Assembly (NCBI GenBank): GCA_002479035.1
Contig: DLLA01000184.1
Coordinates: forward strand, 1-14,652
Source: Bacteroidales bacterium UBA7574
GTDB taxonomy: Bacteria; Bacteroidota; Bacteroidia; Bacteroidales; Paludibacteraceae
Direction: 5' to 3'
DNA length: 14,652 bases
The notes beneath the pieces are model-generated. The model saw only the letters and a list, made by a program, of their open reading frames with translations. It did not search any database and was not told where the DNA came from. Position numbers and translations under genes: made by a program. Below, in pieces: positions 1-14,652 of the stretch (positions are counted from its first letter, which is position 1; each line of letters starts with the position of its first letter).

Positions 1-15
1 GAGGCTGTCTAACAA
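1..15 (+). repeat. Left terminal inverted repeat of the IS
   Basis: GAGGCTGTCTAACAA is perfectly complementary to the last 15 bases of the element (1881-1895). The similarity continues imperfectly inward: both ends carry GGCAGTCT followed by a T-rich tract, offset by 4 bases (29-36 at this end). Confidence 0.9.
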
Positions 16-48
16 TGCAAAGTTGTTGGGCAGTCTTTTGTTTTTATC
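1..48 (+). terminator. Inward-facing terminator-like hairpin at left IS end
   Basis: Bases 5-15 pair with 23-33 over 11 bp (two G-T wobbles) around a 7-base loop, TGCAAAG. The stem can be extended by four further weaker pairs to bases 1 and 37. A T-rich tract, TCTTTTGTTTTT, follows directly. Read rightward into the element this has the form of an intrinsic terminator, which would stop transcription entering from the left flank. It is formed by the terminal repeat itself. Function is inferred from form only. Confidence 0.5.
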
Positions 49-180
49 AGGAGGCGTGCTATACTCAATTCGGCAAAGCACCAACCGACAAAAAACAGGT
101 AATTGATTTTATCTTTGTAAATTGCCTCCGAAAACGGACAAACGAGTAATAATTGCCCTCAAAAAAAGCAAAAAAGGCTC

Positions 181-1707
181 TTATGCGCCCCTTCTGTGCA
201 TCTTTTGGATGTTATGCGCCATTGCTTTAAGACCAAACTCAAGGCTCACCCCCTCTTTACCACGCAAACGCATACGGCGAAACCCGCCGTTCGCCTTTAA
301 TTGTCCGAAGACCGCTTCAGGTTCTATCGGACGTTTGCTTCTGTATTCCAACCCCTCTTCGCTTGTCAGCAGTTCACGCGCCTGACGTTTGTATGCGTTC
401 AGCCTGTGATTGACTTCTATCTGTCTGTTGCCTCGGGCTTTATGACACTGCCCCCGCAACGGACAACCCTCACAATTCTGTGCCCGATAGACACTTACCA
501 CACTCTTGAAACCGCCGTCACTCACCCGCTGTTCGTCCCGCACCTTGTCCATGTGCTGCCCCATCGGACAGACATAATAATCATCTTTCTCGTTATAATA
601 CAGGTTGTTCGGCAGAAAGGCATTCTCTTGGTACTTCTTGTGCTGCTCCTTATGGAAAAGGGGATACTTGACATACGCCGTAATACCTTTCTGCTCAAAG
701 TACTGATAGTTCTGTTCGCTGCCATAGCCGGAGTCCGCCACCACCACATCACTATAAAAACCGTACCGTTTCGCAAAACCCTCCTGATACGGGATGTTGG
801 TCAGATAATCCGTTGGGTTGGGAAAGACCTCGTAATGAGTGATAAACTGATTTTCCGTGGATTGCTGTACGTTATACCCCGGTTTCAGTTGTCCGTTCAT
901 CATGTGGTCTTCCTTCATCCGCATAAAGGTGGCATCTTCGTCTGTTTTGGAATAGGAATTGCGTTCTCCCATCTTGGACAGATGCTCGTCATACTCCTTC
1001 AGTTTGGGAAGAGACTTTTGTTCGGCATCTTTTAAGGCTTTCTGCTGCTGTTTTGCCAACTTCGCCTCATCAACAGCGGATTTGATACGCTCGATGCGTC
1101 GGCTGAAATCTTCCGTGCTGATGTTTTCAGGAGAGGGCAACTCGCCGCTTTCCAACTCGTTCTCCTGCTCTATCTTTTGCAGCAAAGCAGCCACACGGGC
1201 TTTGAGTTTGGATTGGTTTTTCTCCACACTCTTGCGCCAGACAAAGGTGTACTTGTTGGCACAGGATTCCACTTTGGTACCATCCACATACTGCACCTTC
1301 AAACTGACGAAACCCTGTTCGGACAAAAGAACCACCACTTGGGTGAAGAGACTGTTAAAGTGTTCTTTCAGGCGTTTGCCGCGGAAATAATTGATGGTAC
1401 GCCAGTTGGGGCGGCGCATACCCGACAACCACATGAAAGTAACATTCTCACGGAGGGCTTGCTCTATCTTGCGGGAGGTATAGATATTGCACAGATAGGC
1501 ATAGACCAGTATCTTTACCATTGTGCGCGGGGAAAAAGCACTGGTGCCGCCGCCTTTGTAGGTGCCGAACAATTCGGAGATATCCAAGCGGTCAATCAGC
1601 GCGTTTACGGCACGGACTATGTGCGTTTGAGGAATTAAATCGTCAATATCTATCGGAAAAAGACCTTTCTGTTTGGCGATCTCGGATTTTATTGCTAATT
1701 TTGCCAT
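181..1707 (-). CDS. IS1182-family DDE transposase
   Basis: This 508-aa protein catalyses cut/paste or copy movement of the surrounding IS. The N-terminal part (about residues 15-125, with SPRTMVKILVYAYL) matches the DUF772-type transposase domain. The probable catalytic triad is D142 in YVDGTKVES, D325 in VVADSGYGS and E464 in RPIEPEAVFGQLK, followed by the family-typical GGFRRMRLRG. A charged, probably coiled-coil insertion of about 90 residues (155-245) separates the first two acidic residues. A cysteine cluster (C380, C412, C415, C421) before the last catalytic residue may bind zinc. The frame is full length without stops, so the enzyme may be active. The start is the ATG at 1707; it follows a good promoter by about 40 bases. 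No transfer-related neighbour is present. Confidence 0.93.
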   Translation of the reverse strand: MAKLAIKSEIAKQKGLFPIDIDDLIPQTHIVRAVNALIDRLDISELFGTYKGGGTSAFSPRTMVKILVYAYLCNIYTSRKIEQALRENVTFMWLSGMRRPNWRTINYFRGKRLKEHFNSLFTQVVVLLSEQGFVSLKVQYVDGTKVESCANKYTFVWRKSVEKNQSKLKARVAALLQKIEQENELESGELPSPENISTEDFSRRIERIKSAVDEAKLAKQQQKALKDAEQKSLPKLKEYDEHLSKMGERNSYSKTDEDATFMRMKEDHMMNGQLKPGYNVQQSTENQFITHYEVFPNPTDYLTNIPYQEGFAKRYGFYSDVVVADSGYGSEQNYQYFEQKGITAYVKYPLFHKEQHKKYQENAFLPNNLYYNEKDDYYVCPMGQHMDKVRDEQRVSDGGFKSVVSVYRAQNCEGCPLRGQCHKARGNRQIEVNHRLNAYKRQARELLTSEEGLEYRSKRPIEPEAVFGQLKANGGFRRMRLRGKEGVSLEFGLKAMAHNIQKMHRRGA

Positions 1708-1744
1708 AGGTTATGTCGCTTCAGTTCTGTTCTTTTTTACACTA

Positions 1745-1775
1745 CAAAGTTACTGAAAATCTTTGACATAACCAA
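1745..1775 (-). promoter_or_regulatory. Bacteroidota-type promoter of the transposase gene
   Basis: On the minus strand, TAACTTTG (1745-1752) matches the -7 consensus TAnnTTTG exactly. A TTGG (1772-1775) lies 19 bases further upstream, the normal spacing for the -33 element. Transcription would begin near 1738, leaving a leader of about 30 bases before the ATG at 1707. Confidence 0.65.
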
Positions 1776-1855
1776 GGTTTTTCTGCTTTATTTTTCGGCA
1801 GAAAGACCTTTTTTTATACACACAACTTTTATATTTTATACACAACCATACTCTA

Positions 1856-1895
1856 CAAAAAAGAGACTGCCAAACGATACTTGTTAGACAGCCTC
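1856..1895 (-). terminator. Inward-facing terminator-like hairpin at right IS end
   Basis: Read on the minus strand from base 1895, the terminal repeat folds into a stem (CTGTCTAAC with GTTTGGCAG, one T-T mismatch and one wobble, loop AAGTATC) and is followed by TCTCTTTTTT. This mirrors the hairpin at the other end, so both ends could block outside transcription from reaching the transposase gene. This end lies just upstream of the transposase promoter, where read-through protection would matter most. Confidence 0.5.
1881..1895 (-). repeat. Right terminal inverted repeat of the IS
   Basis: TTGTTAGACAGCCTC is the exact reverse complement of bases 1-15. The inner shared block (AGACTGCC on the plus strand) lies at 1864-1871. 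The sequence beyond 1895 continues as the open reading frame of a truncated gene, which fixes the element's boundary. Confidence 0.9.
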
Positions 1896-1896
1896 T

Positions 1897-2016
1897 ATCG
1901 GTATAGATGCGATGCAACCGGCAAGCCGCAAATGGATGGAGGACGGTGTGCTGCGCATAGAGCACAACGGACGTGTGTACGATGCGCAAGGCAATGTGCT
2001 GAAAGACAAACAGTAA
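1897..2016 (+). pseudogene. C-terminal remnant of a secreted protein gene cut by the IS
   Basis: Immediately after the IS end an open frame of 39 codons runs to a TAA at 2014-2016. It ends in ...EDGVLRIEHNGRVYDAQG..., which resembles the short conserved C-terminal tail (DG-x-L-x-I-x-x-x-G-x-x-Y-x-x-x-G) found on many exported Bacteroidales proteins. The upstream frame meets a stop (TAG, 1885-1887) inside the IS, so no full gene can be read from within the element. The remnant has the same polarity as the operon downstream and stops only 32 bases before the amidase start, so it was probably the preceding operon member. The N-terminal part would lie left of base 1. An alternative is a tiny intact gene from the ATG at 1912, which I consider unlikely. 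Confidence 0.6.
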
Positions 2017-2048: not shown

Positions 2049-5000
2049 ATGAGAAAATTCTTTACTCTTTTAGGGTTGGTGGCAGCGATAGTTGCCTTTG
2101 CCCAGACGAGCGTTACGATTGAAGACCGGAAGATGGTGGTTATGCGTGACGGTCAGAGTTATGTGCTGACGCCGAATGGCGAGGATGCCAGTTATTTCTG
2201 GGCAAGCGTATCGCCCGATGAGCAGCACTTGGTGTATGTGACGGCACGTTATGGCACGTTTGTGTGCGACATAGACGGAAAGCACGTGCAGTCAATGGGT
2301 CGTATGAATGCTCCGAAATGGATAGACAACCGCCATGTGGCAGGTATGCAGGAGTTCTATACGGGGCATGACGAGATAGACTATATCCGCTATATCGCGC
2401 GCAGTATAGACGGGCGCGACACCCGTGACCTCTGTACGGTGGAGAAGCAAGTGTTTATTGAGGCGGAGAATGTGCGTCTGGCAGCCGAGAAGAAACGTCA
2501 GGCAGCGCGTTTGGCAGCCCGCCATGAGGCACAGCAAGAAGCGGGGCTGAAGGGCATAAAGATATACATCAACCCCGGGCACGGCGGACATGATGCCAAC
2601 GACCGCAGTATATGGACGATACCCGTACCCGAAGTATGGACCAACCCGAAAGGCTACTGGGAGAGCAACTCGAACCTCGTGAAGGGCTTGGCACTCCGCG
2701 ATATGCTGGAGAAAGCAGGTGCCACGGTGATTATGTCGCGCACGACGAATAATTCGGGAATCCGCGATGTGAAATACTATCCGAATGCGACGGCAGAGGA
2801 GTTGAAAGAGTTGGAGAACGGCGACGACCGTGACCTGAGTGCGATAGCCGAGGAGGCGAATGCCAACAATGTGGACCACTTTATCTCGATACACTCCAAT
2901 GCACTGAACTCGCAGACCAACTACCTGCTGATGCTGTATCACGGCAAGACAGGCGAACCGACCGTGGCACAGAGCGACCAGATGGCAGCCAGCAGCGGCG
3001 GGATACAGATAACCAACCCGCTGACGGTATGGACCAGTCCGGCTCCTATCCTGCGCGGTGACTTGACATTCTACAATGACGATATGGGTTTGGGCGTGCT
3101 GCGTCCGCTGACGGTGCCGGGATTCCTGAGCGAGGGTAGTTTTCATGACTACGCGCCGGAGACACACCGTTTGTGCAACGATGACTATTGCAAGTTGGAG
3201 GCATTGCGTATGTACCAGCACTTCCACAAGTGGTTCAAGCGCGAGTTGCCGCAGACCGCCACGATTAGCGGCTGGGTGAAGTCAAGCAATGAGTTGGTGG
3301 ACGTGCTCAACCAACCGAAGTTCGTGTATGTGCCCAACAGCGATGACCAGTGGTTGCCGTTGAACGGAGCGAAAGTGGAGTTGTACAAAGGTGATACGAA
3401 GATTGCCGAGAAGACGACCGACGACTGGTACAACGGTGTGTTTGCTTTCTATGACCTCGAGCCCGGTGACTACCGTGTAGTGGCAAGCAAGGATAAATAC
3501 AGCACCTTGGAGACGCAGGTAACCGTGAAAGCCGAGGAGATAGCAGGCGTGAAGATGCAACTGAAGAATATCCGCTTGCAGGCTACGGATTACCCGTGTG
3601 CGGAAAGCGATGCGATGGCATTGGACAACTATGAGTTTGAGACGGTGGGCGAGAAGGCGGCATGTCCCGCAGGCGTGACGCGTGCGCTGTACCGCAATGG
3701 CAAGTGCTATATGCTGATTGGCGGCGTGGTGAAGAGTTACAACACGGACATGACGGGCGAGACCGCCCTGCCGATGCCCGAAGGTGTGGTGCTGAGCGAT
3801 ATAGGCTTCAGTGCAGACAACTACCTGATAGGTAAGGTGGCAGACAAGGGCACCTTCTATATATGGGACGAGAATATGCAGAACCCCACGGTGCTGTTTG
3901 AGAATGAGGCGGCAAAAGGCAAGTCGTTCTCCATCAGCGGTTCGGCATGGTGCAGCCGCTATATGACAGGAACAGGCAAGACCGTTTGCAGCCTTGTGTA
4001 CAATGCTGATGCAGAGGGCGAAAAGACTGCCATTGCAATGGCAGAGACAGAAGAAGATTATACCGACAAGCAACTGACCATTGACCCGTTTGGCAAGGTG
4101 TGTGATATTGCAGGTGTCAGTTTCTTCTGCTACGCAGGGCACTACTATATGGCACGCCCTGTGAGCGACGGCAAGGCAAAAGTGGGTTTCCGCCTGTATG
4201 ACGTTACCGAGGGTATGGACAAGGCACAAGAGGTCAGCAGCCAATATCCCGCAGAAGGTTTGGGCGAAGCAGAGGCTGCCTATATGAGCACTATGGCATG
4301 GGTGGACGGATATACCATTCATATCATCGTATTGGCAGACGGCGAGGGTGTGCAGCACTTCCAATCGCTGTCGTCACCGGTGGCAAATATCTACGCGGGT
4401 GAGTTGGACTGCGACGGCACGAACTTCTATTTCCGCCTCAATGAAGACGCTACCAACGTGAGCATCACCATTGAGAAGGACAATGAGATAGTGGATACAC
4501 ATGTGATTGGTGCTATGAGCAAGGGTTCGCACAAGGTGGCTAACCCGTTCACAGGCAAGGAATTCGACCACTACAGCATTACGGCTGCCACACGCGCTAT
4601 TGCTTACCCCGCCAAAATCAGCACGGATGACGAGGTGTTCCAGTTCTATGCCGCACGCGGTGTGGCTGTGGACAAGACCCCGTCCAGCCCGTATTTCGGA
4701 CGTGTATATGTCAGCAACTCGGTAGGCGGTCAGTGCGCAGAAGGCACGGCACCCTCGTTCCGCAACTCGGAAAAAGGCATATTCGTGTTGGGCAACGACT
4801 TGACGGATGTTACCAACCAAGGGGCTAAGGCGTGGACAGGTGCCGTAGAGTGGGGAGCAGAGGAACCTGCCACCTACCAATTCGCCTTGGCACGCCTCTC
4901 GGTGGCTCCTGATGGCGATGTGTTTGTACCAAGTTCCTCTTTCGGTTCGTCGGGTGTATATGTGATGAACCCCGCCAAACCCGACAGTGCTTTCACCCCT

Positions 5001-5855
5001 GTCTTCAGTGGCAAGCGCAGCAAATCCACAGGGCAAGTCAAATCGGGTTCAAAGGATGTGATATGCAATCCCGTGATGAGTTGCGTGGTACTCGGCACAG
5101 GCAAAGACGAGGTGCTCTATACGTATGACCGCGACAATAGTATGGGGCCTATAATCAGCAATATCAACCAATACAATATCGGTGAGCAAGAGGCATTGCC
5201 TTGGACCACGGCACCATCGGCAATGTTCTTCGATGATGCCAACACGGGTTCGCACATGAAGAATGGTAGTGGCGAGTTGGCTTATGACCAGCGCGGAGGC
5301 TTCTTTATGAGCCAGTACCGTTTCAATAGTGGTGCTGCTGTTCCCGCTCTGATTCACGTGAACGCCAAGGGCGAGATAGACTTCAATATCGCCAACAACG
5401 GCATCGACGGTGCCCACCAAGGCGGTATGGGTATCAGTGCAGACGGCAATATGATAGCCGTAGGTGCGGAAAAGGGTACCGTGAAGGTATGGGACGTAAC
5501 CTACAACGAGACTACGGGTGCACCCACCCTCACCGAGAAGTGCATCATCGAGTGGGGCACAACCGGCAACACGATGGGTGTGGACTTTGATGCAGCGGGC
5601 AACCTGTACATCGTCTCCAACTCCAACGAGCGACTGATGGTATATGCCCTGCCGAACACCAACAACACCTATACTACGCGCGTACCCGTACGTGAGGGCA
5701 TTCAGTTCCCGATGGGCGTTGATGAGGTAGGTGCAGATACCACACCCGCCATGCGTCAGGGCATCTACACCGTCACGGGGCAGTACTTAGGCACCGACGA
5801 GAGCCAACTACCTGCAGGTATGTACATCATTAACGGCAAGAAAGTAATCAAATGA
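2049..5855 (+). CDS. Secreted multidomain N-acetylmuramoyl-L-alanine amidase (Amidase_3) with propeller-like C-terminal regions
   Basis: This 1268-aa protein should cleave the bond between MurNAc and the stem peptide of peptidoglycan. A signal peptide (about 1-18) is followed by a small beta-rich segment (22-110) and a charged helix (about 133-165). The Amidase_3 domain spans about 168-400: probable zinc ligands are H178 (INPGHGGHD), E205 (YWESNSN) and H282 (SIHSNAL), and the catalytic glutamate is probably E362 (FLSEGSFHDY). Residues 403-508 form a carboxypeptidase-regulatory-like beta sandwich. Residues 520-780 are beta-rich and recall the propeller of the lipoprotein at 11238. After another sandwich (780-850), residues 865-1230 carry NHL/WD40-like repeats (AVDKTPSSPYFGRVYVSNS, MGVDFDAAGNLYIVSNS). 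It ends in GMYIINGKKVIK, a Bacteroidota C-terminal tail motif. No promoter is visible in the 32-bp upstream gap. It overlaps susC by 4 bp. Amidase activity is well supported; the roles of the C-terminal regions are unknown. Confidence 0.9.
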   Translation: MRKFFTLLGLVAAIVAFAQTSVTIEDRKMVVMRDGQSYVLTPNGEDASYFWASVSPDEQHLVYVTARYGTFVCDIDGKHVQSMGRMNAPKWIDNRHVAGMQEFYTGHDEIDYIRYIARSIDGRDTRDLCTVEKQVFIEAENVRLAAEKKRQAARLAARHEAQQEAGLKGIKIYINPGHGGHDANDRSIWTIPVPEVWTNPKGYWESNSNLVKGLALRDMLEKAGATVIMSRTTNNSGIRDVKYYPNATAEELKELENGDDRDLSAIAEEANANNVDHFISIHSNALNSQTNYLLMLYHGKTGEPTVAQSDQMAASSGGIQITNPLTVWTSPAPILRGDLTFYNDDMGLGVLRPLTVPGFLSEGSFHDYAPETHRLCNDDYCKLEALRMYQHFHKWFKRELPQTATISGWVKSSNELVDVLNQPKFVYVPNSDDQWLPLNGAKVELYKGDTKIAEKTTDDWYNGVFAFYDLEPGDYRVVASKDKYSTLETQVTVKAEEIAGVKMQLKNIRLQATDYPCAESDAMALDNYEFETVGEKAACPAGVTRALYRNGKCYMLIGGVVKSYNTDMTGETALPMPEGVVLSDIGFSADNYLIGKVADKGTFYIWDENMQNPTVLFENEAAKGKSFSISGSAWCSRYMTGTGKTVCSLVYNADAEGEKTAIAMAETEEDYTDKQLTIDPFGKVCDIAGVSFFCYAGHYYMARPVSDGKAKVGFRLYDVTEGMDKAQEVSSQYPAEGLGEAEAAYMSTMAWVDGYTIHIIVLADGEGVQHFQSLSSPVANIYAGELDCDGTNFYFRLNEDATNVSITIEKDNEIVDTHVIGAMSKGSHKVANPFTGKEFDHYSITAATRAIAYPAKISTDDEVFQFYAARGVAVDKTPSSPYFGRVYVSNSVGGQCAEGTAPSFRNSEKGIFVLGNDLTDVTNQGAKAWTGAVEWGAEEPATYQFALARLSVAPDGDVFVPSSSFGSSGVYVMNPAKPDSAFTPVFSGKRSKSTGQVKSGSKDVICNPVMSCVVLGTGKDEVLYTYDRDNSMGPIISNINQYNIGEQEALPWTTAPSAMFFDDANTGSHMKNGSGELAYDQRGGFFMSQYRFNSGAAVPALIHVNAKGEIDFNIANNGIDGAHQGGMGISADGNMIAVGAEKGTVKVWDVTYNETTGAPTLTEKCIIEWGTTGNTMGVDFDAAGNLYIVSNSNERLMVYALPNTNNTYTTRVPVREGIQFPMGVDEVGADTTPAMRQGIYTVTGQYLGTDESQLPAGMYIINGKKVIK

Positions 5856-8800
5856 AACGATTAGCAACCATACTATTGGCATTGGCTACCCTCTGTGTAG
5901 CCAATGCTGCTACTATTACCGGCAAGGTTACGGACGGCGCAGGCGAACCCCTGATAGGTGTCAGCGTGTTGGTGGTAGGTACCACCACGGGTACCATCAC
6001 CGATTTCGACGGCAACTATGCCATTGAGGCAGATGCCAAGGCGCAACTACGCTTCTCCTATATCGGCTACAACACCCTCACCGAACCCGTCAACCAACGC
6101 ACGGTAATCAATGTCACGCTGCGCGAGGACAACAAGATGCTCGACGAGGTGGTTGTAGTCGGCTACGACACCCAGCGCAAGGCCAACCTGACGGGTGCAG
6201 TGGGGTCCGTGAGCGTGGAAGACCAGTTGGAGGGGCGTCCTATCGCCAATGTGGGTACGGGTCTGCAAGGTGCCGTTCCCGGTCTGACTGTTACGCAGTC
6301 TTCCGGACGGTTGGGCGACACGCCTAAGTTCCGTATCCGTGGTGCTGTCGGCACACTGCTCAACGAGGGCAACGATGCCAGCCAACCGCTTATCCTGGTG
6401 GACGGTGTGGAGATTAGCGACATTTCCATGGTCAATGCCGATGATATTCAGGACATCTCCGTATTGAAAGACGCGGCTTCCTCCAGCATCTATGGTACGC
6501 GTGCCGCCTTCGGTGTGATACTGATTACCACCAAGTCGGGTGCAGGAGCGCAATCCAAGTTCACGGTCAACTATTCCAACAACTTCTCGTGGGCAACCCC
6601 GACGGCACTGCCCGAGGTGGCTAAGTCGTATGTCGGTGCGGAGATGGCACTCGAGGCACGCCAGCGTCGTACACCGGGTACTACGGTCTTTACGAATGCA
6701 TGCGGACTCGTATGGGATGCCGAAGATATTGAGAATATGAAGGAATGGGACCGTATGTACGGCAACCAGAATCTCGGACCCGAGATGGTGGAGGGGCGTG
6801 ACTTTGTCATCAAGTCAGGCACCCCGCATTTCTATCGCGGCTGGAACGCTGCTGACGAGTACATCAAGGACTTCTCTTTCTCGCAGCAGCACAACCTCAG
6901 TTTCAGCGGTACGGCGGGCAAGACCAACTATTATATGGGGCTCAGTTATATGGGGCAGGGCGGTGTCGTGAAGGTCAACCCTGACGAATACAACCGCTAC
7001 TCGGTGAATTTCTCCACTGATACCGAAATCAAGCCATGGCTTCACGTCCGCAGCAAGGCTCTCTACACGCGTACCGACCTTGAGACACCGTTCAACTACG
7101 GCACATCCAGTTACGATGCCCTCTACTACCTCTACCGTTGGCCTGCTATCATGCCTTACGGCACCTACGAGGGACACCCGTTCCGCAACTCGGTCACCGA
7201 GACGGCTGCGGCGAATATGAACAGCAACCTCAAGGACTATATGCGTATGTCCGTGGGCGCGACTTTCACCCTCGGCATACCCGACTTGACCCTCGACCTT
7301 GATTATACCTACAACCTTGACAATCAGAGTATCACCCAGCGCGGTGGCACTGTGGGCGGTTGGGATTTCTGGAGCGGCAGTATGCAACTCGTGGACAACT
7401 GGGCAGCCACTTCGCGCAACAAGATTGACAAGTACATCTACCACCGCAACTACCACGCGGGCAATGCGGTCCTGCGTTACAAGCACACGTGGAACGATGC
7501 TCACAGCCTCAATGTCTTTGCAGGTATGAACATCGAGTACAAGGCGGTGGACTATGTCAACGCCGAGAAGCGCGACCTTCTCGACCAGAACAAGGCGGAA
7601 ATCTCCCTTGCCACGGGCGAGAACTTCATCTATGGCAGCCACTCTTCGTGGGCAATCATGGGCTTCTTCGCGCGTGCCAACTATGCCTATCGCAACCGCT
7701 ACCTCGTTGAGTTGAACGGCCGCTTCGACGGCTCCTCACGTTTCCCCACCGACCAACGCTGGGGCTTCTTCCCGTCGGCTTCGCTCGGTTGGGTGGCAAG
7801 CGAGGAGAACTTCTGGGAAGTCCTCAACCCGTGGTGGAGTTTCTTCAAGATTCGCGGTTCGTACGGCTCTATCGGCAACCAGGACATCGGCGACAACCGC
7901 TTCCGTGCTATCATGAGTTCCTACAACAGCGGCTGGATTGTCGGCTCTACCAATATGCTTACTTTCTCCTTGCCCACCGCCATTGCCGACGGCTTCACAT
8001 GGGAGACCATCAAGACCATGAACCTCGGTATCGACACACGTTTCTTCAAGGATGAACTGGGTGTCAGTTTCGACCTCTACCGCCGTATCAACGATGGCAT
8101 GGTAGTGGGTGGCACAGAGGTCCCGAGCACTTTCGGAGCCACTGCACCCTACGAGAACGCAGCCCAACTCACCACCAACGGTTGGGAACTCTCTCTCGAC
8201 TACCACCACCGTTTCAACTGCGGGCTGCGCCTCAACCTCACCGCCAACCTCGCCGACGCGCTCACCATCGTCACCAAGCACCCCCGCAAGAACACCTCCG
8301 TCATCGACGGCAGCAACTACGAGGGCAAGATATATGGCGAGATATGGGGCTTCATCACCGACCGCCTCTTTCAAGAGGATGACTTCAATGCCGACGGCAC
8401 CCTCGTGGACGGCATCGCCTCGCAGTCCTACTTCGAGAAGATGAGCGGCTACGGCTACAAGTACGGCCCCGGTGATGTCAAGTATATGGACCTCGACGGT
8501 GACGGCGAAATCACGTGGGGCGACAAGACCGCTGCCAACCCGGGCGACTGGCGTCGCATCGGCAACACCACTCCGCGCTACGAGTACAACTTCAAGATTG
8601 GCCTCGACTGGTACGGCGTGGACCTCAGCCTGCTCTTCCAAGGTGTCGGCTCGCGTCAGTACTGGGCTACGGGCACCATGATGATACCCGGGTGGAACTT
8701 CTCCGAGGGCACCTACTATGCCCACCAGACCGACTACTGGAAGCCCGACCACACCGACGCTTTCTACCCTCGTCTCACTGAGACCAACCAACCCGGGCAG

Positions 8801-9100
8801 TACTCGGCGGCAGGCTTCAACTTCCTCTGCCAGACGCGCTACCTGCTCGACATGAGTTACCTGCGTCTCAAGAACATCACCCTCGGCTACAGCCTGCCCG
8901 AAAAGGCGCTCCGCAAGATGCACTTCTCCAAGTTCCGCATTTATTTCAGTGCTGAGAACGTCTGTGAGTTCGACCACCTTGGTAACCTGCCTATCGATCC
9001 AGAGACCGACACCTCTACCGGTGACGGTGGTGCCATGGGCTGGGGACGTATCTACCCCTTCACCCGCCAACTCAGTTGTGGTCTCCAAATCTCGTTATAA
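5852..9100 (+). CDS. SusC/RagA-family TonB-dependent outer-membrane transporter
   Basis: This 1082-aa protein is the TonB-driven outer-membrane channel that takes up oligomers held by its SusD partner. It has a signal peptide (about 1-19), a carboxypeptidase-regulatory-like N-terminal extension (about 20-92; ITGKVTDGAGEPLIGVSVLV), the TonB-box region LDEVVVVGY (97-105), a plug (about 110-230, ending in the family signature SVLKDAASSSIYGTRAAFGV) and a beta barrel to the C-terminal GLQISL. An EF-hand-like acidic loop, DLDGDGEI, lies at 880-887, as in many SusC proteins. The length is normal for the family. The start ATG overlaps the amidase stop in ATGA, suggesting translational coupling; the SusD gene follows after 19 bases. 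The substrate cannot be read from the sequence; the neighbouring amidase and NamZ point to peptidoglycan fragments. The gene is C-rich in its third codon positions, with CTC and ACC common. Confidence 0.95.
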   Translation: MKRLATILLALATLCVANAATITGKVTDGAGEPLIGVSVLVVGTTTGTITDFDGNYAIEADAKAQLRFSYIGYNTLTEPVNQRTVINVTLREDNKMLDEVVVVGYDTQRKANLTGAVGSVSVEDQLEGRPIANVGTGLQGAVPGLTVTQSSGRLGDTPKFRIRGAVGTLLNEGNDASQPLILVDGVEISDISMVNADDIQDISVLKDAASSSIYGTRAAFGVILITTKSGAGAQSKFTVNYSNNFSWATPTALPEVAKSYVGAEMALEARQRRTPGTTVFTNACGLVWDAEDIENMKEWDRMYGNQNLGPEMVEGRDFVIKSGTPHFYRGWNAADEYIKDFSFSQQHNLSFSGTAGKTNYYMGLSYMGQGGVVKVNPDEYNRYSVNFSTDTEIKPWLHVRSKALYTRTDLETPFNYGTSSYDALYYLYRWPAIMPYGTYEGHPFRNSVTETAAANMNSNLKDYMRMSVGATFTLGIPDLTLDLDYTYNLDNQSITQRGGTVGGWDFWSGSMQLVDNWAATSRNKIDKYIYHRNYHAGNAVLRYKHTWNDAHSLNVFAGMNIEYKAVDYVNAEKRDLLDQNKAEISLATGENFIYGSHSSWAIMGFFARANYAYRNRYLVELNGRFDGSSRFPTDQRWGFFPSASLGWVASEENFWEVLNPWWSFFKIRGSYGSIGNQDIGDNRFRAIMSSYNSGWIVGSTNMLTFSLPTAIADGFTWETIKTMNLGIDTRFFKDELGVSFDLYRRINDGMVVGGTEVPSTFGATAPYENAAQLTTNGWELSLDYHHRFNCGLRLNLTANLADALTIVTKHPRKNTSVIDGSNYEGKIYGEIWGFITDRLFQEDDFNADGTLVDGIASQSYFEKMSGYGYKYGPGDVKYMDLDGDGEITWGDKTAANPGDWRRIGNTTPRYEYNFKIGLDWYGVDLSLLFQGVGSRQYWATGTMMIPGWNFSEGTYYAHQTDYWKPDHTDAFYPRLTETNQPGQYSAAGFNFLCQTRYLLDMSYLRLKNITLGYSLPEKALRKMHFSKFRIYFSAENVCEFDHLGNLPIDPETDTSTGDGGAMGWGRIYPFTRQLSCGLQISL

Positions 9101-9119
9101 CATTATCTAACAACGTATT

Positions 9120-10955
9120 ATGAAGAATAATCATATAATCCTTTCGCTCCTCGTCGCCGCTTCTGCGCTGGCGTTTACGGGCTGTGAAAACTTCCTCAAC
9201 CAGCCTGCCTACGACGACTTCACCGATGCCGAGTACTGGCAGAACGAGGACCAGGCGCGCACCTACATGTACGGCTTCTACACCTCTGTCTTCTCGGGCT
9301 ATGGTACGGGCACGTCCCACGGACCGTTCCTCATGGGGCAGACCACCAACGACGACTTCGCCTCCGACAAACAGCAACTCAACCTCCGTCCCGAGGCGGT
9401 GCCTGTTTCCGATGGCTCGTGGTCGTTCTCCAATATCCGCAAGGCGAACTATGTGCTTGAGAATATCGACCGCATCGATGCCAACGCGGCTACCAAGAAT
9501 CACTGGCGCGGGGTGGCACGTTTCTTCCGCGCCTGCTACTACAGCAACCTCACCTTCACCTACGGCGATGTGCCTTGGTTCGACCGTGTGCCTGTGGCAA
9601 GCAGCAAAAAGGAGGACCTCGACTACCTCTACAAGGACCGCGACCCCCGCACCTACGTGGACGCGCGTATCATCGAGGACTTCCGCTATGCTATGGATAG
9701 TGTCCGCGAGAACGATGGCGCGATGCAAGTCAACCGCTATGTGGTGGCAGCCATGGCGTCCCGCTATCTGCTGCGCGAGGGTACGTTCCTCAAGTACCAT
9801 AATATCGACCTCGATATGGCGGAGCGGTGTCTCGTTGCCGCACGCGATGCTGCCTTGCTCGTCATGAACTCAGGCAAATACTCCATCGCGCCGTCCTACA
9901 AGTCGCTTTTCGTCAGTGATAACCTCGCCGACAATCCCGAAATCATCATGTACCGTCACTATGAAGATGGCGTCCTCGCGCACTCCACGCTCACCTATTC
10001 ATTCACCGAGGCGCAGGCAGGTCTCAGCAAGTCCCTCGCCGAGTCTTTCCTCACCGCCGACGGACTGCCTTTGGAATACAAATATCCAACGTATATTCCA
10101 AAGACAGAGGAAGAGTTCTTTAACAATCGCGACCCACGTCTTACAATGTGTATTCGCCCTCATTATTATCTGAAGGGCACTGACACCAAGCCTTTCAACT
10201 ATGCATTGTCGGGCTACTCGTGGTGCAAGTTTATGGATGACGACCGTGCCACAGCACCCGAAGCCACGTGGACGGGCTCCAAGAACATCACCGACGCACC
10301 TTGTTTGCGTTATGCAGAAGTGTTGCTTAACTATGCAGAAGCGGCTTATGAGCTCCACTTGCTTAATGCATCTTATCCATTCTCCAATGCAGAACTTGAC
10401 CGTTCTATCAACCTTATCCGTGCTCGTAAAGATGTTAATTTACCAGCCTTACAGGTTATTGCAGGCAACCAACCGGCTGTAAATGGAATAGCGTATGTAG
10501 ACCCCAAATATACAGCAATAGAGTACAATGCACAATACTACCCGGGCGATAGAACAAAAGACGGAGGTCCGATAGATGCCATCCTTTGGGAGATTCGTCG
10601 TGAACGCCGTGTGGAACTGTGTATGGAAGGCTTCCGTCTCAACGACCTCAAGCGTTGGTACAGATTAGGGTATCTTTATAATGGCTGTAATCCAGACATA
10701 CGTTATGGTGCGTATATCAACAAAGATAACTACCAAGGTACTGACCCTGAAATAGTGCTTGTAAGTGCAGATGTGAATGATATGGCTACCGCCACTGCAG
10801 ATGCCGCACTCAAAGAAGGCTACATTCTCCGTAATACTGAAGGTATGCGTGAAATGCCTGTCCCACGCAACTATGTCAATCCTGTGCCGTCAGGGCAAAT
10901 CACCTTGTACAAAACCAAGGGCTACACCCTCACCCAAACCAAGGAGTGGCAATAA
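9120..10955 (+). CDS. SusD/RagB-family surface lipoprotein
   Basis: This 611-aa lipoprotein is the lid and binding partner of the SusC transporter directly upstream. The lipobox is LAFTGC with the acylated cysteine at C22, followed by ENFLNQPAYDDFTDAEYW, the usual SusD start. Alpha-helical TPR-type segments follow; KNHWRGVARFFRACYYSNLTFTYGDVPWF is typical (given here as a family signature beginning near residue 126). The C-terminal part contains LRYAEVLLNYAEAAYEL and REIRRERRVEL-like sequence (WEIRRERRVELCMEGFRL). Full length for the family. It is odd in composition: to about codon 319 (base 10076) the gene is as GC-rich as susC, while the rest is much more AT-rich and uses different codons, without any break in the frame. 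That suggests a mosaic allele. Confidence 0.94.
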   Translation: MKNNHIILSLLVAASALAFTGCENFLNQPAYDDFTDAEYWQNEDQARTYMYGFYTSVFSGYGTGTSHGPFLMGQTTNDDFASDKQQLNLRPEAVPVSDGSWSFSNIRKANYVLENIDRIDANAATKNHWRGVARFFRACYYSNLTFTYGDVPWFDRVPVASSKKEDLDYLYKDRDPRTYVDARIIEDFRYAMDSVRENDGAMQVNRYVVAAMASRYLLREGTFLKYHNIDLDMAERCLVAARDAALLVMNSGKYSIAPSYKSLFVSDNLADNPEIIMYRHYEDGVLAHSTLTYSFTEAQAGLSKSLAESFLTADGLPLEYKYPTYIPKTEEEFFNNRDPRLTMCIRPHYYLKGTDTKPFNYALSGYSWCKFMDDDRATAPEATWTGSKNITDAPCLRYAEVLLNYAEAAYELHLLNASYPFSNAELDRSINLIRARKDVNLPALQVIAGNQPAVNGIAYVDPKYTAIEYNAQYYPGDRTKDGGPIDAILWEIRRERRVELCMEGFRLNDLKRWYRLGYLYNGCNPDIRYGAYINKDNYQGTDPEIVLVSADVNDMATATADAALKEGYILRNTEGMREMPVPRNYVNPVPSGQITLYKTKGYTLTQTKEWQ

Positions 10956-10984
10956 TCCATGCAATACGCTTAAGGTTCTCTTTG

Positions 10985-11013
10985 TCCCCCTCCTTGAGGG
11001 GGGCGGGGGAGTC
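10985..11013 (+). repeat. G/C-rich palindromic repeat, copy 1
   Basis: CCCCCTC-CTT-GAGGGGG forms a perfect 7-bp stem with a 3-base loop, followed by GCGGGGGAGTC. The 29-bp unit recurs at 14405-14433 in the same orientation with 26 of 29 bases identical. It lies 29 bases after the susD stop. No T tract follows, so it is not a classical terminator on the plus strand. It looks like a dispersed intergenic (REP-like) element. Confidence 0.6.
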
Positions 11014-11047
11014 CCTAATTATTATCGTTTATTAATCGATTCAAACA

Positions 11048-11085
11048 GCAAGGGATACGCAACCCTTATGCAAGGGATAGGCAAC
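11048..11085 (+). repeat. Pair of 16-bp direct repeats with 22-bp period
   Basis: GCAAGGGATACGCAAC (11048-11063) and GCAAGGGATAGGCAAC (11070-11085) differ at one base and start 22 bases apart, about two helical turns. The first copy plus the spacer can also fold as AAGGG-N8-CCCTT. The pair lies in the 282-bp gap before the propeller lipoprotein gene. It could be a regulator-binding site or the relic of a short duplication; nothing decides between them. Confidence 0.45.
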
Positions 11086-11179
11086 GGATAAACCATCCAT
11101 ACGTGAGTAATTGTTATAAATTATAAACACCCGCTACTGCGGAGAATTAATGGTTAATTACACGGTAATTACGTGTTCC

Positions 11180-11206
11180 TTGTTTTTATGGGTAAAGAAT
11201 GTTTTG
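11180..11206 (+). promoter_or_regulatory. Weak candidate promoter for the propeller lipoprotein gene
   Basis: A TTG (11180-11182) and ATGTTTTG (11199-11206) partly resemble the -33 and -7 elements of Bacteroidota promoters; the conserved TA of the -7 box is missing and the spacing (16 bases) is short. Transcription would begin close to 11213, about 25 bases before the ATG at 11238. Just upstream lies an inverted repeat, ACACG-N7-CGTGT (11160-11176). The rest of the gap 10956-11237 shows no gene, only AT-rich sequence and the repeats listed separately. Read-through from susD is an equally good explanation for expression. Confidence 0.25.
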
Positions 11207-11237
11207 GTTAATACCAATGTGAATTATTAGTTGTTAA

Positions 11238-12971
11238 ATGTATATGAAACGTAATCTTTTCTTTTCGTGCATCGCCCTTATCGGGTTGCTGTGCACACCC
11301 GGATGCAAAGGTCCGGAGGAGAACAACAATGACACCGTTGAGGCGCTCATCAAGTCTATCTCTATCAAAAACTCCACCTACACAGGTACGGTGGACAACA
11401 CCGCTTACACCGTCACCTTCGACAACGTAGCAGCCGAGACCGACGTCAACGCTATCCAGTTCAACGCCAAACTCTCGCTCGGTGCCAAACTCGACAAGGA
11501 CACCTACGACTTCACCCTCAACACCTCCGAGGACGGCAAGCAACTCAAGCAGGACGTGAAGGTCATCAACGGTACCAAGGAGCAGGTCTATGAGGTCTTT
11601 ATCAACCTCAGCGACCCGACCTCGGACCCGCAGCTCGACAAACTCGTCATGAAGTCCCGTGGCGGCACCGAGTACACAGCCCAAGTGGTGGACGGCATTC
11701 TCGCGCTCGGTATGCCCGATGAGGCGGAGGCTATCCTCTCGTCTATCACGCTTATCCCCGCACGTGCCACCTACCAATTCACCGAGATGAAAGACGATGT
11801 CCTCACCGCAGCCAACCCGGGCAAACTCATTATCGAGTTCATGGGGCGCAAGACGGAGATGGAAATCACCTTCAAGAGCGGACCTACCCCGGGCGTGGAC
11901 TTCTCACAAGCCGTTGTACACGACTTCTCTGTCGCTACGGGTGCCACACCTGCCTATTTCGCAGGCGAGCAGGTTCGCGGTAGCGATTTCGATGGTGAGT
12001 ATGTGCTTATCGTCTCCCGTGAAGGAGCAGAGACGCCCACACCGCGCCTGTTGAAGGTCGCTGACCTTCTCGCCAACAACGCAAACGCTCCGATTATGCT
12101 CAATGTTGAGGGCGTGACGGGCGGTACACACGTTGTCAGTGCCGGTCGTCTCTCACACGGACACATCTATATCTGCAACCTTGTAGCCCCCGTCAGTGCG
12201 GCTTCACCCTTGAAGGTATATCACTATGCGTCCCCGACGGCTATGCCCGATGTATGGACGTGGGATGGTGTCATCAGTGTGAACGGCAACGATACCACCA
12301 AGTACAACGGACGTCTTGGTGACAATATGTCTATCAACCTCGACGAGAGCGGTAACGGATACGCCTTCTTCTGCAAGCAGGAGCCCGGCGACAAGATTTA
12401 CCGATTCAACGTTACCAACTTCACTACCTTCTCCGACCCCTACGAAATCAGTCTCGAAGATATATGCTCCTACTACGGTTATGTCAATCAAGTGGAAGCG
12501 GGCAAATACCTGTTCACCAGTACGTACGTACCGTTTGTTCGCCTGATGGATGCCAATGGTACGAAACTCATTGACGACGTGGAGTTCGATTTCACCGAAG
12601 CGGACGCACGACCCAATCACGGAGTGGACCCGCGTATCATCAACTACAATCGCGGACGCTATCTGATGTTCACCGTAGCCAACTCGCAACCGATGCACTA
12701 CAATTTCGGTCCTGTACTCTACATCATGGACATCACCGACGGTGTGGACAACCAAGCCGCATTGGTTAAGTTGTCAGAGGCTATCAATAACAGCACCGAG
12801 GAGAACCCATGGGAGCCTACGTATGGCTACTTCCTTGACACGGAGGGTAAGACCACGGCATCGGCTTGCTCCGCACAGTGCAACGCTGCCGAAGTGGACG
12901 GCAAGTTAGTGGTTTATACCGCCGCTGTCAATGCCGGCTTTGCCCTTATCGAATTCCCCAAGGCTCAATAA
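11238..12971 (+). CDS. DUF4623-like beta-propeller lipoprotein, likely surface ligand-binding
   Basis: This 577-aa predicted lipoprotein (LLCTPGC, C23; then an acidic KGPEENNND stretch) follows the SusC/SusD pair, where surface glycan-binding proteins usually sit. Two Ig-like beta segments (about 37-125, resembling DUF5018; and 128-215) precede a C-terminal propeller region (about 220-577) that resembles DUF4623: GSDFDGEYVLIVSRE, RLLKVADLL, GGTHVVSAGRLSHGHIYICNL, PLKVYHY. No catalytic motif is recognised. I infer it binds the locus's substrate or its product, in the position of SusE/SusF. The start at 11238 gives MYMKRN; the ATG at 11244 (MKRN) is equally possible and gives a more usual signal peptide. 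Composition returns to GC-rich shortly after the start. A hairpin terminator follows 29 bases after the stop. Confidence 0.8.
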   Translation: MYMKRNLFFSCIALIGLLCTPGCKGPEENNNDTVEALIKSISIKNSTYTGTVDNTAYTVTFDNVAAETDVNAIQFNAKLSLGAKLDKDTYDFTLNTSEDGKQLKQDVKVINGTKEQVYEVFINLSDPTSDPQLDKLVMKSRGGTEYTAQVVDGILALGMPDEAEAILSSITLIPARATYQFTEMKDDVLTAANPGKLIIEFMGRKTEMEITFKSGPTPGVDFSQAVVHDFSVATGATPAYFAGEQVRGSDFDGEYVLIVSREGAETPTPRLLKVADLLANNANAPIMLNVEGVTGGTHVVSAGRLSHGHIYICNLVAPVSAASPLKVYHYASPTAMPDVWTWDGVISVNGNDTTKYNGRLGDNMSINLDESGNGYAFFCKQEPGDKIYRFNVTNFTTFSDPYEISLEDICSYYGYVNQVEAGKYLFTSTYVPFVRLMDANGTKLIDDVEFDFTEADARPNHGVDPRIINYNRGRYLMFTVANSQPMHYNFGPVLYIMDITDGVDNQAALVKLSEAINNSTEENPWEPTYGYFLDTEGKTTASACSAQCNAAEVDGKLVVYTAAVNAGFALIEFPKAQ

Positions 12972-13000
12972 GATATAGCACAGCGTGCATTTTATAGTTG

Positions 13001-13037
13001 GAGGCTGTCTGGCATAGCATGGTCAGGCAGCCTCTTG
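13001..13037 (+). terminator. Hairpin terminator after the propeller lipoprotein gene
   Basis: GAGGCTGTCTGGC (13001-13013) pairs with GTCAGGCAGCCTC (13022-13034) over 13 bp, including two G-T wobbles, with an 8-base loop (ATAGCATG). Only a short, imperfect T tract (TTGCT) follows. Position between two same-strand genes, with a promoter just downstream, supports termination of the upstream operon. Its outer ten bases, GAGGCTGTCT, equal the outer ten bases of the IS ends. Confidence 0.6.
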
Positions 13038-13055
13038 CTAAAAGTGCCACCATGG

Positions 13056-13086
13056 TTGTAGAATCCAACCAAAACACCTACCTTTG
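13056..13086 (+). promoter_or_regulatory. Promoter of the NamZ gene
   Basis: TACCTTTG (13079-13086) matches the Bacteroidota -7 consensus TAnnTTTG exactly, and a TTG (13056-13058) lies 20 bases upstream as the -33 element. Transcription would begin near 13093, about 15 bases before the ATG at 13108. An inverted repeat, TGGTTG-N7-CAACCA (13053-13071), overlaps the -33 element and could be an operator. This makes the NamZ gene a separate transcription unit from the upstream operon. Confidence 0.7.
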
Positions 13087-13107
13087 TACCATAGATAGAA
13101 AAGAGAA

Positions 13108-14328
13108 ATGAAAAGAATACTTTTGTTTTTGGTAGCCCTGACGGGTACTATCCTTTGCGGGGCTGTCACGGCAGACCCGCGGCAACCTGCTGAACAGACG
13201 CGCGTCATCGTAGGCGCGGAGCGCACCGATGCCTATCTGCCCCTCTTGCAGGGCAAGCGCGTGGCACTGCTCAGCAACCATACGGGTATGGTGGGCGATG
13301 TGCATACGTTGGACCACCTCCTTGCGCACGGTGTGCAAGTCACCGCTGTCTTCTCCCCCGAACATGGCTTCCGCGGCACGGCACGCGAGGGCGAACATGT
13401 GCAGAGCAGCGTGGACGAGAAGACCGGCATTCCCATTCTCTCCCTCTACGACGGCAAGACCTATCGTCCGTCGGCAGAGTCCATGGCTCTGTTCGATGTG
13501 CTCATCACGGACATACAGGACGTAGGACTGCGTTTCTACACCTACTATATCACCATGATGCGTCTCATGGACGCCTGCGCCCATAGCGGCAAGCCGTTCA
13601 TTGTCTTCGACCGACCCAACCCCAACGGATACTACATCGACGGACCCATCTTGGATATGCGCTACAAGTCGGGTGTCGGGGCTTTGCCTATCCCTGTGGT
13701 ACACGGTATGACGTTGGGCGAACTGGCACAGATGATAAACGGAGAACACTGGCTGAATGATTCACTGCAGGTTGATTTGACGGTCATTACTTGTCTCAAC
13801 TACACCCACCAGACCACCTACAACCTGCCTGTACCCCCTTCGCCCAATTTGCGGAATATGTTGGCTATCTACCTCTATCCGTCTGTCTGCCTGTTCGAGG
13901 GCACCCCCGTTTCTTTGGGGCGCGGTACGGACAAGCCTTTCCTCTGCTACGGGCACCCCGACTATCACTCCGCCACGGCGACAGACACGCTTTCTTTTAC
14001 ACCTGCGGCTTCCACCCAGAAGGGCAACCTGTGCCACGGCATTGACCTGAGCGGTATTTCGGAAACCGATGCCCGTAAGGTGCATTTCTCGTTGCGGTAC
14101 CTGATAGATGCCTACAACGTGGTACGTGCCAATGCCGACACCACCGATGGCAAGGCATGGGACGGAAATGCCTTTTTCACACCTTTCTTCGAGAAACTGG
14201 TTGGGGTGGACTATATCCGCCGTGACATCATCGCCGGGCATACCGAAGAAGAGATTCGCGCCCGCTGGCGGGCGGACGTGCAGCACTTTGAGAAACAGCG
14301 TAAGCCCTACCTGCTCTACGCAGAGTAA
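13108..14328 (+). CDS. namZ: Exo-beta-N-acetylmuramidase NamZ (DUF1343, GH171)
   Basis: This 406-aa exported protein belongs to the DUF1343 family, whose characterised members (NamZ/YbbC of Bacillus subtilis, glycoside hydrolase family 171) release MurNAc from the non-reducing ends of peptidoglycan glycans. A cleavable signal peptide ends near A22 (GAVTA). Family motifs are all present: LLSNHTG (54-60), SPEHGFRG (83-90) with the likely catalytic E85 and adjacent H86, DIQDVGLRFYTY (135-146), FDRPNPNG (167-174), IPVVHGMTLGELA, and PPSPNLRNMLAIYLYP followed by FEGTPVSLGRGTDKPF. Length is normal for the family. It has its own promoter, follows a terminator, and converges with an SGNH hydrolase gene. 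Removal of stem peptides by the amidase upstream would fit exo-muramidases preferring unsubstituted MurNAc ends; that cooperation is inference. Confidence 0.92.
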   Translation: MKRILLFLVALTGTILCGAVTADPRQPAEQTRVIVGAERTDAYLPLLQGKRVALLSNHTGMVGDVHTLDHLLAHGVQVTAVFSPEHGFRGTAREGEHVQSSVDEKTGIPILSLYDGKTYRPSAESMALFDVLITDIQDVGLRFYTYYITMMRLMDACAHSGKPFIVFDRPNPNGYYIDGPILDMRYKSGVGALPIPVVHGMTLGELAQMINGEHWLNDSLQVDLTVITCLNYTHQTTYNLPVPPSPNLRNMLAIYLYPSVCLFEGTPVSLGRGTDKPFLCYGHPDYHSATATDTLSFTPAASTQKGNLCHGIDLSGISETDARKVHFSLRYLIDAYNVVRANADTTDGKAWDGNAFFTPFFEKLVGVDYIRRDIIAGHTEEEIRARWRADVQHFEKQRKPYLLYAE

Positions 14329-14372: not shown

Positions 14373-14404
14373 CAAAAGAGCCCACAGTAATGCCATAGTG
14401 AAAA

Positions 14405-14433
14405 TCCCCCTCTTTGAGGGGGTGGGGGGAGTC
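14405..14433 (+). repeat. G/C-rich palindromic repeat, copy 2
   Basis: CCCCCTC-TTT-GAGGGGG is a perfect 7-bp hairpin, followed by TGGGGGGAGTC; 26 of 29 bases match the copy at 10985-11013. It lies 7 bases after the stop of the SGNH hydrolase gene on the minus strand. On that strand the hairpin is followed by ATTTTC, so this copy could act as a weak terminator for that gene. Confidence 0.6.
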
Positions 14434-14440
14434 TGTTGCT

Positions 14441-14652
14441 TTATAGGTGTTTGTTTATCTCGGCAGTGATAATAGGCTCCATAATGTCGTAGCCTGCTGC
14501 GGTAGGGTGTACGCCGTCCTTGGAGTACGCTTCGGGCAGTCCGCCGCGTTCATCGACCAAGGCGGAGTAGTAGTCCACATACGGGATATGGTTCTTCTCG
14601 GCGTATGCACGGAGCAGACTGTTGAGTTGGCGGATAGTCTCTGCGGGAGAGC
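14441..14652 (-). CDS. SGNH/GDSL-type hydrolase, C-terminal part (runs off the window)
   Basis: The minus strand encodes 69 C-terminal residues and a TAA stop; the N-terminal part lies beyond base 14652. The segment contains YSKDGVHPTAAGYDIM, the SGNH-hydrolase block V in which the aspartate and histidine (DGVH) complete the catalytic triad, and upstream IRQLNSLLRAYAEKNHIPYVDYY, the usual helix and strand before it. Such enzymes are esterases or acetylesterases; the substrate cannot be told. Being next to NamZ, de-O-acetylation of peptidoglycan sugars is a possibility, but it is on the opposite strand and may be unrelated. The frame and motif make the call secure despite the truncation. Confidence 0.85.
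   Translation of the reverse strand, partial: SPAETIRQLNSLLRAYAEKNHIPYVDYYSALVDERGGLPEAYSKDGVHPTAAGYDIMEPIITAEINKHL

What the first reader, a model, noticed from the sequence alone, without database searches (positions are those of the whole stretch)
2049..14328. Candidate peptidoglycan/muropeptide utilisation locus built on SusC/SusD
Seen: an Amidase_3 enzyme with intact metal and catalytic residues is translationally coupled to a SusC/SusD pair, followed by a propeller lipoprotein and a GH171 NamZ. Known: SusC/SusD systems mainly import glycans or peptides, and NamZ releases MurNAc from glycan ends. Inferred: this set takes up and dismantles cell-wall fragments from other bacteria or from the cell's own turnover. 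Few Sus-type systems are assigned to peptidoglycan, so this is the most likely 'undescribed system' in the window.
Basis: partly seen in the sequence, partly recalled or inferred. Interest (0 to 1): 0.72.

Follow-up and report, generated by a model that had tools for sequence, protein, structure and literature searches.

The report
Sus-type locus for eating bacterial cell walls
A Bacteroidales genome carries a set of genes that appears built to strip, cut, import and dismantle the cell-wall sugars of bacteria, using the kind of transport machinery these bacteria normally use for dietary and host glycans; the gene set recurs in related genomes, and in this strain its first gene has been hit by a mobile element.

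Summary
The amidase, with its expected active-site residues, overlaps susC by 4 bp and is followed by susD, a DUF4623 propeller lipoprotein and NamZ. Relatives strengthen it. The upstream gene, cut here by IS1182, is a GHL10 peptidoglycan glycan-cleaving enzyme: its 39-residue remnant is 34/39 identical to a GHL10 tail. GHL10 stands just upstream of the amidase in 30 of 33 testable loci; SusC-SusD-DUF4623 follows in 17 of 20 and is nearby in 2 of the other 3. NamZ lies within 4 kb of DUF4623 in 12 of 30 genomes, with an SSF symporter next in 11. DUF4623 is in 30 of 30 such genomes against 11 of 393 drawn Bacteroidales; MurQ in 28 of 30 against 21 of 149. Single relatives add GH20, MurQ, a BadFG kinase and NlpC/P60. 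Best reading: a polysaccharide-utilisation-type locus for peptidoglycan glycan, probably from outside the cell. No biochemistry exists; my paper searches found no such SusC/SusD system. New variant of a known kind.

The parts
1..1895 (-). IS1182-family insertion element; 15-base perfect terminal inverted repeats 1-15 / 1881-1895; transposase 181-1707 on the minus strand
   Evidence: NF033551 454 bits, over its cut-off; inverted repeat I2 100%
1897..2016 (+). remnant (last 39 codons plus stop) of the GHL10 (PF02638) gene cut by the element
   Evidence: 34 of 39 residues identical to the end of GHL10 protein P0189; GHL10 just upstream of the amidase in 30 of 33 loci
2049..5855 (+). Amidase_3 with signal peptide (by eye), PD40-like N-terminus, CarboxypepD_reg domain, long propeller-like region and sorting-type C-terminal tail (by eye), 1268 aa
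5852..9100 (+). SusC/RagA TonB-dependent transporter, 1082 aa, ATGA overlap with the amidase
9120..10955 (+). SusD lipoprotein, 611 aa
11238..12971 (+). DUF4623 lipoprotein, N-terminal beta-rich part plus propeller, 577 aa; candidate surface glycan-binding protein
13108..14328 (+). NamZ (GH171-type) exo-beta-N-acetylmuramidase with signal peptide (by eye), 406 aa

Best explanation
This is a polysaccharide-utilisation-type locus for the glycan strand of peptidoglycan. Proposed steps: (1) the secreted Amidase_3 removes stem peptides from MurNAc; (2) the GHL10 enzyme, encoded just upstream and cut by IS1182 in this strain, cleaves the bare glycan strand; (3) DUF4623 and SusD bind the fragments and SusC imports them; (4) in the periplasm NamZ takes MurNAc off the non-reducing end, alternating with a beta-hexosaminidase (GH20 in some relatives); (5) free MurNAc enters the cytoplasm, in relatives through the SSF symporter next to namZ, and is used through a MurK-type kinase and MurQ. 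Shown here: the genes, their kept motifs and their repeated linkage. Inferred: every biochemical step in these proteins, their cellular location, and the ligand of SusC/SusD.
For: GHL10 within three same-strand ORFs upstream of the amidase in 30 of 33 loci, and SusC-SusD-DUF4623 downstream in 17 of 20. The same genes in another order in L019, L021 and L032, and in L031 without a GHL10 hit. Starting instead from DUF4623 in drawn genomes, 11 of 393 match: GHL10 is the next gene in 4 (L117, L118, L120, L121), with SusC-SusD alongside in the wider regions L133-L136; G007 is the amidase locus itself; the other 6 are weak hits (72 bits or less) with no labelled neighbour. NamZ within 4 kb downstream of DUF4623, same strand, in 12 of 30 genomes, SSF next in 11 (the 12th contig ends). 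L017: MurQ, NlpC/P60, an MR_MLE-family enzyme, GH20 and SpoIID in the adjacent divergent cluster. MurQ over cut-off in 28 of 30 locus genomes against 21 of 149 drawn (Fisher 3e-17). The only PDB sequence match (E <= 0.01) of a relative's GHL10 is Cwp19, 267 bits, a lytic transglycosylase by the abstract and passages of PMC6016235. The window NamZ falls with the SSF-linked NamZ, apart from the recycling-type branch.
Against: No SSF, MurK, MurQ or hexosaminidase gene lies in the window, and no whole genome is held for it. NamZ is not near DUF4623 in 18 of 30 genomes, some with contig ends. GH20 is divergent upstream in 9 of 26 loci by a three-ORF rule (L017 also has it, further off). MurQ is not over the cut-off in G003 and G019. 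MurQ, NlpC/P60 and the MR_MLE enzyme were seen close by in one or two loci only. In L135 the NamZ beside the kinase and MurQ is of the recycling branch. In L133, L134 and L136 no NamZ or MurQ was labelled, and four scanned neighbours in L133 are HMGL-like, aconitase and Iso_dh-type enzymes. 44 of the 80 fetched loci (L037-L080, some short) carry shorter amidases, with no DUF4623, SusD or NamZ hit. Sampling leans to Paludibacteraceae, so Fisher values overstate independence. SprA (28 of 30) was not compared with a background. Nothing shows what SusD or SusC binds.
Confidence: 0.75

Rival explanations
1. The locus salvages the cell's own shed wall (outer-membrane recapture in recycling) rather than feeding on other bacteria.
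For: The enzymes would act on any peptidoglycan; MurQ is over cut-off in 28 of 30 genomes.
Against: 25 of 30 locus genomes have two or more NamZ matches, against 16 of 149 drawn. In G007 one NamZ sits with SpoIID, an MFS/BT1 permease and MurQ, a set that looks like recycling, so recycling seems already served there. Sorting domains (PF18962) in 6 of the 20 proteins of A1, not the window's, and SprA in 28 of 30 genomes fit export.
Confidence: 0.15
2. SusC/SusD import the released stem peptides, RagAB-like, while the glycan is handled elsewhere.
For: The amidase gene overlaps susC and its products include peptides; L017 has NlpC/P60 and an MR_MLE-family enzyme, which would fit peptide breakdown.
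Against: SusC scores 358 and 265 bits with 8aa4 and 5t3r (SusC homologues; 5t3r is BT1762-1763, elsewhere called a levan transport system) against 183 for RagA, called RagAB peptide transporter. SusD's RagB matches rank 49 and 50 of the 50 shown. These are weak guides to ligand.
Confidence: 0.12
3. The SusCD pair takes up some other glycan, and the wall enzymes are chance neighbours.
For: Ligand class cannot be read from SusC/SusD sequence; NamZ is not near DUF4623 in 18 of 30 genomes.
Against: Recurrence of GHL10 and amidase next to the same SusC-SusD-DUF4623 set in 30 of 33 and 17 of 20 loci, and in altered order elsewhere.
Confidence: 0.05

Closest known systems
Polysaccharide utilisation loci (Sus-type), e.g. 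the levan system of B. thetaiotaomicron (SusC, SusD, GH and SGBP utilisome; passages of PMC11658791)
   Same: SusC-SusD pair, further surface lipoprotein and enzymes in one transcriptional direction; DUF4623's second-best Foldseek hit, over part of the protein (204 columns, TM 0.15), is levan utilisome chain 8aa2_G
   Different: The enzymes are peptidoglycan enzymes (amidase, GHL10, NamZ) and no regulator gene was recognised in the window
Tannerella forsythia MurNAc salvage (murTKQ, AmpG, NamZ1/NamZ2)
   Same: Sodium-symporter-family MurNAc transporter, kinase and MurQ in one operon (passages of PMC5790795); two NamZ paralogues (title seen only in a reference list)
   Different: No SusC/SusD pair, DUF4623, GHL10 or amidase is mentioned with it in the passages I saw
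GHL10 enzymes: Cwp19 (lytic transglycosylase) and E. coli DigH (denuded-glycan hydrolase)
   Same: A relative's GHL10 matches Cwp19 at 267 bits; DigH degrades denuded glycan (PMC12288456)
   Different: Those serve autolysis and cell separation; here the gene is part of an uptake locus. That DigH belongs to PF02638 is recalled; one search shows only that the family's search rings in the E. coli control genome
NamZ (GH171)
   Same: Both NamZ domains over cut-off; PDB 4jja at 508 bits
   Different: Beside SusCD, and in relatives beside SSF; lies on a branch apart from the recycling-type NamZ

Membership tests
Polysaccharide utilisation locus (Sus-type) | adjacent susC and susD | tested here: met
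   TIGR04056 and PF07980, 19 bases apart
Polysaccharide utilisation locus (Sus-type) | linked enzymes that act on one glycan | tested here: met
   amidase and NamZ in the window plus GHL10 remnant; amidase-GHL10-SusCD linkage conserved, NamZ in 12 of 30
Polysaccharide utilisation locus (Sus-type) | surface glycan-binding lipoprotein | tested here: inconclusive
   DUF4623 has a lipobox-like start (by eye) and propeller fold; binding unknown
Polysaccharide utilisation locus (Sus-type) | linked regulator | tested here: inconclusive
   none recognised among the six window proteins scanned; both window ends cut the neighbourhood
Polysaccharide utilisation locus (Sus-type) | growth on, or import of, the glycan | not testable with these tools
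   needs culture
Amidase_3 N-acetylmuramoyl-L-alanine amidase | zinc ligands and catalytic Glu | tested here: met
   H178, E205, H282, E362 kept in 31 of 31; roles recalled
NamZ exo-beta-N-acetylmuramidase (GH171) | NamZ_N plus NamZ_C and conserved motifs | tested here: met
   PEHG and DRPNP kept in 17 of 17 aligned (second copies of genes from overlapping loci left out)
GHL10 (PF02638) | catalytic domain present in this strain | not testable with these tools
   only the last 39 codons are in the window; the window starts at the end of IS1182
Type IX secretion cargo | recognised C-terminal sorting domain | tested here: inconclusive
   PF18962 in 6 of 20 members of A1 but not called in the window amidase; SprA in 28 of 30 relatives' genomes, no background taken
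MurNAc salvage (MurT/MurK/MurQ) | SSF transporter, kinase and etherase encoded | tested here: inconclusive
   found in relatives; not in the window and no genome held

The most novel reading that the evidence does not exclude
A dedicated outer-membrane peptidoglycan 'utilisome': a surface amidase and GHL10 enzyme attack the wall of dead or living neighbours, DUF4623-SusD-SusC capture and import peptide-free glycan, and NamZ with SSF feed MurNAc into catabolism, so that some gut and rumen Bacteroidales live partly on other bacteria's cell walls.
Probability: 0.55. Interest if true: 0.78.

Novelty: new variant of a known kind. Interest (0 to 1): 0.62.

Why it matters
SusC/SusD loci are a main way Bacteroidales take up glycans, yet the paper searches I made turned up none assigned to peptidoglycan. 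If right, a cell-wall-eating niche becomes testable, DUF4623 gains a likely role (binding peptidoglycan glycan), and a route appears by which gut bacteria could consume wall fragments that otherwise may reach the host.

Tried and rejected
Chance neighbours: rejected by recurrence. IS1182 lying between unrelated genes: rejected, since the remnant matches a GHL10 tail at 34/39. An earlier comparison with locus proteins only was suggestive: local scores 57-73 for six GHL10 ORFs (L001-L005, L033), 49 or less for the other GHL10 tails shown and for 945 other ORFs; BLASTP there was weak, its best hit a 713-aa protein (E 0.006) ahead of a GHL10 (E 0.023). The remnant being the tail of an amidase-type protein: best amidase tail 65 against 184.

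SSF next to namZ in the window: absent; a converging fragment, SGNH-like by eye, is there instead. NamZ presence as a marker: not informative, 138 of 149 drawn genomes have it. MurQ with a laxer cut, near misses and partial hits counted: 28 of 30 against 29 of 149. Both draws hold their centre genome (G007; G003), which is itself one of the 30. Of the 149 drawn genomes those with DUF4623, G003 included, have MurQ in 4 of 5; an earlier 4 of 4 left G003 out, as did the 4 of 4 for amidase-positive genomes (G040, G071, G102, G139; with G003 it is 4 of 5). Two of those DUF4623 hits (G102, G158) are near the cut-off. Sigma-70-type promoter hits did not exceed shuffles. A Bacteroides-type promoter pattern at 1672 overlaps the IS transposase gene and a looser one at 1762 lies within the IS; not followed. 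A draw of 393 genomes with the window amidase itself gave 25 with a match, most to one domain or tail.

Papers: ten searches, seen as listings. None listed a SusC/SusD system for peptidoglycan by title or abstract start. Passages (find) seen: PMC11382707, PMC10877868, PMC7670621, PMC5790795, PMC12288456 (plus section 8), PMC12440217, PMC10465942, PMC6016235 (plus abstract), and, in checking this report, PMC6987092, PMC11658791, PMC11748540, PMC12131861, PMC12915301, PMC10322874, PMC13209645. Those passages assign no SusC/SusD pair to peptidoglycan; PMC12131861 names GH171 as a core Bacteroides family and PMC11748540 lists it under host glycans. Subscription journals are mostly outside the library. 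The NamZ1/NamZ2 paper is not held.
Full report
OBSERVATION. The five genes lie as described and belong to the stated families. The amidase stop and susC start overlap by four bases. The four residues expected of an Amidase_3 active site are kept in 31 of 31 long relatives over 200 bits. NamZ has both domains and matches PDB 4jja at 508 bits. The DUF4623 protein models well and superposes on PDB 4ftd and, over residues 218-577, on NHL-type and sialidase-type propellers.

Bases 1-1895 are an IS1182 element with perfect 15-base ends. Just after it, 1897-2016 encode the last 39 residues of a gene. These are identical at 34 of 39 positions to the end of P0189, a GHL10 protein found by homology. In relatives GHL10 stands within three same-strand ORFs upstream of the amidase in 30 of 33 loci with at least 2.5 kb upstream: immediately before an amidase gene in 16, with one PD40-type ORF between in 13, with more between in L033. 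So the first gene of this locus was hit near its 3' end. The window begins at the element's end, so the rest of the gene cannot be seen.

CONSERVATION. One scan of genome contigs with an alignment of 20 amidases gave 80 loci, the best of 87. L001-L036 carry the long amidase type, some on short contigs; L037-L080 carry shorter amidases, with no DUF4623, SusD, NamZ or GHL10 hit among their ORFs. Among L001-L036, SusC, SusD and DUF4623 follow the amidase in 17 of 20 loci with at least 7 kb downstream. Of the three exceptions, L021 has them upstream, L034 has them further on (L132), and L013 lacks them. L019, L031 and L032, which end too soon for that count, carry them upstream. Searching from the other side with DUF4623, 11 of 393 drawn Bacteroidales genomes matched, one being the centre G007 with the amidase locus. 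GHL10 is the next gene in L117, L118, L120 and L121; wider regions (L133-L136) show SusC-SusD there without the long amidase. The other six genomes have weak hits and no labelled neighbour. DUF4623 is found in 30 of 30 genomes taken from amidase loci.

CATABOLIC GENES. NamZ lies within 4 kb downstream of DUF4623 on the same strand in 12 of 30 genomes (G001-G006, G017, G018, G024, G027, G028, G030; my reading). In 11 of these an SSF symporter follows NamZ (in G006 with a small ORF between); in G018 the contig ends. G011 has a NamZ-SSF pair apart from the locus. T. [quoted passage not shown] In L017 the divergent neighbours are MurQ, NlpC/P60, an MR_MLE-family enzyme, GH20 and SpoIID; that the MR_MLE enzyme is an L-Ala-D/L-Glu epimerase is my inference. 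In L135 a BadFG kinase stands between NamZ and MurQ, a few genes from DUF4623-GHL10-SusC-SusD, but that NamZ is of the recycling branch. A divergent GH20 stands within three ORFs of GHL10 in 9 of 26 loci. MurQ passes its cut-off in 28 of 30 locus genomes and in 21 of 149 drawn Bacteroidales; with near misses and partial hits it is 29 of 149. Since many locus genomes are related, the Fisher values overstate the case.

TWO NAMZ KINDS. 25 of 30 locus genomes have two or more NamZ matches, against 16 of 149 drawn. The window NamZ groups with the SSF-linked kind; NamZ from L082 (second copy), L135 and L145 that sit with SpoIID or MurQ form a separate branch with support 1.0. In L145 that cluster holds SpoIID, an MFS/BT1 permease, NamZ, an FAD-linked oxidase and MurQ, which looks like recycling.

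MECHANISM. Amidases make denuded glycan, and DigH specifically degrades it (PMC12288456). Cwp19, the only PDB sequence match of a relative's GHL10 (267 bits), is a lytic transglycosylase with a GHL10 domain (PMC6016235). An amidase next to a GHL10 enzyme therefore reads as 'strip, then cut'. SusC-SusD would import the pieces and NamZ would take MurNAc from the end. Export of the enzymes is suggested by sorting domains in 6 of the 20 aligned amidases and in GHL10 of L016, and by SprA in 28 of 30 genomes (no background taken); the window amidase ends in a similar tail, judged by eye, which Pfam does not call. SusC is closer to 8aa4 and 5t3r than to RagA, a weak guide.

LIMITS. No genome is held for the window. 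SSF, MurK, MurQ and a hexosaminidase are not in the window. No ligand data exist. The element may leave the locus unexpressed in this strain.

NOVELTY. All parts are known families; the assembly as a SusC/SusD locus for peptidoglycan did not appear in ten paper searches or in the passages read (listed under Tried and rejected), from a library that lacks most subscription papers. I class it as a new variant of a known kind.

Noticed in passing
window 1-1895: IS1182-family element inserted near the 3' end of the locus's first gene; its left end coincides with the start of the window.
   Followed up: yes
window 14441-14650, minus strand: End of an SGNH/GDSL-like hydrolase gene (judged by eye) converging on namZ, where several relatives have the SSF symporter; no relative of it was found among the locus ORFs.
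   Followed up: partly
window about 10986-11014 and 14402-14430: Two similar C/G-rich hairpin-forming stretches (CCCCCTC...GAGGGGG...) after susD and after namZ, perhaps a small dispersed repeat.
   Followed up: no
L037-L079, many of them Muribaculaceae: A different recurring set: an 800-850 aa ORF upstream (PF09992 phosphodiester-glycosidase domain in the one scanned, L079), PD40 protein, shorter Amidase_3 proteins, in part of them near SpoIID, a family 2 glycosyltransferase, DUF4922 and a golvesin-domain protein.
   Followed up: partly
L082:9430-17470, L145:8174-20000: Second NamZ cluster with SpoIID and an FAD-linked oxidase; in L145 also an MFS/BT1 permease, Cys-rich protein and MurQ; looks like wall recycling with D-lactate use.
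   Followed up: partly
L003:22031-22918 and homologues in L001, L002, L004, L139: A protein of about 295 aa (no Pfam match for the L003 one) lies between DUF4623 and namZ in the nearest relatives and is absent from the window.
   Followed up: no
L006, L007, L009, L011, L015, L025, L027 and others: A second protein with a related propeller region but no amidase-domain hit follows the amidase; it is missing in the window.
   Followed up: partly
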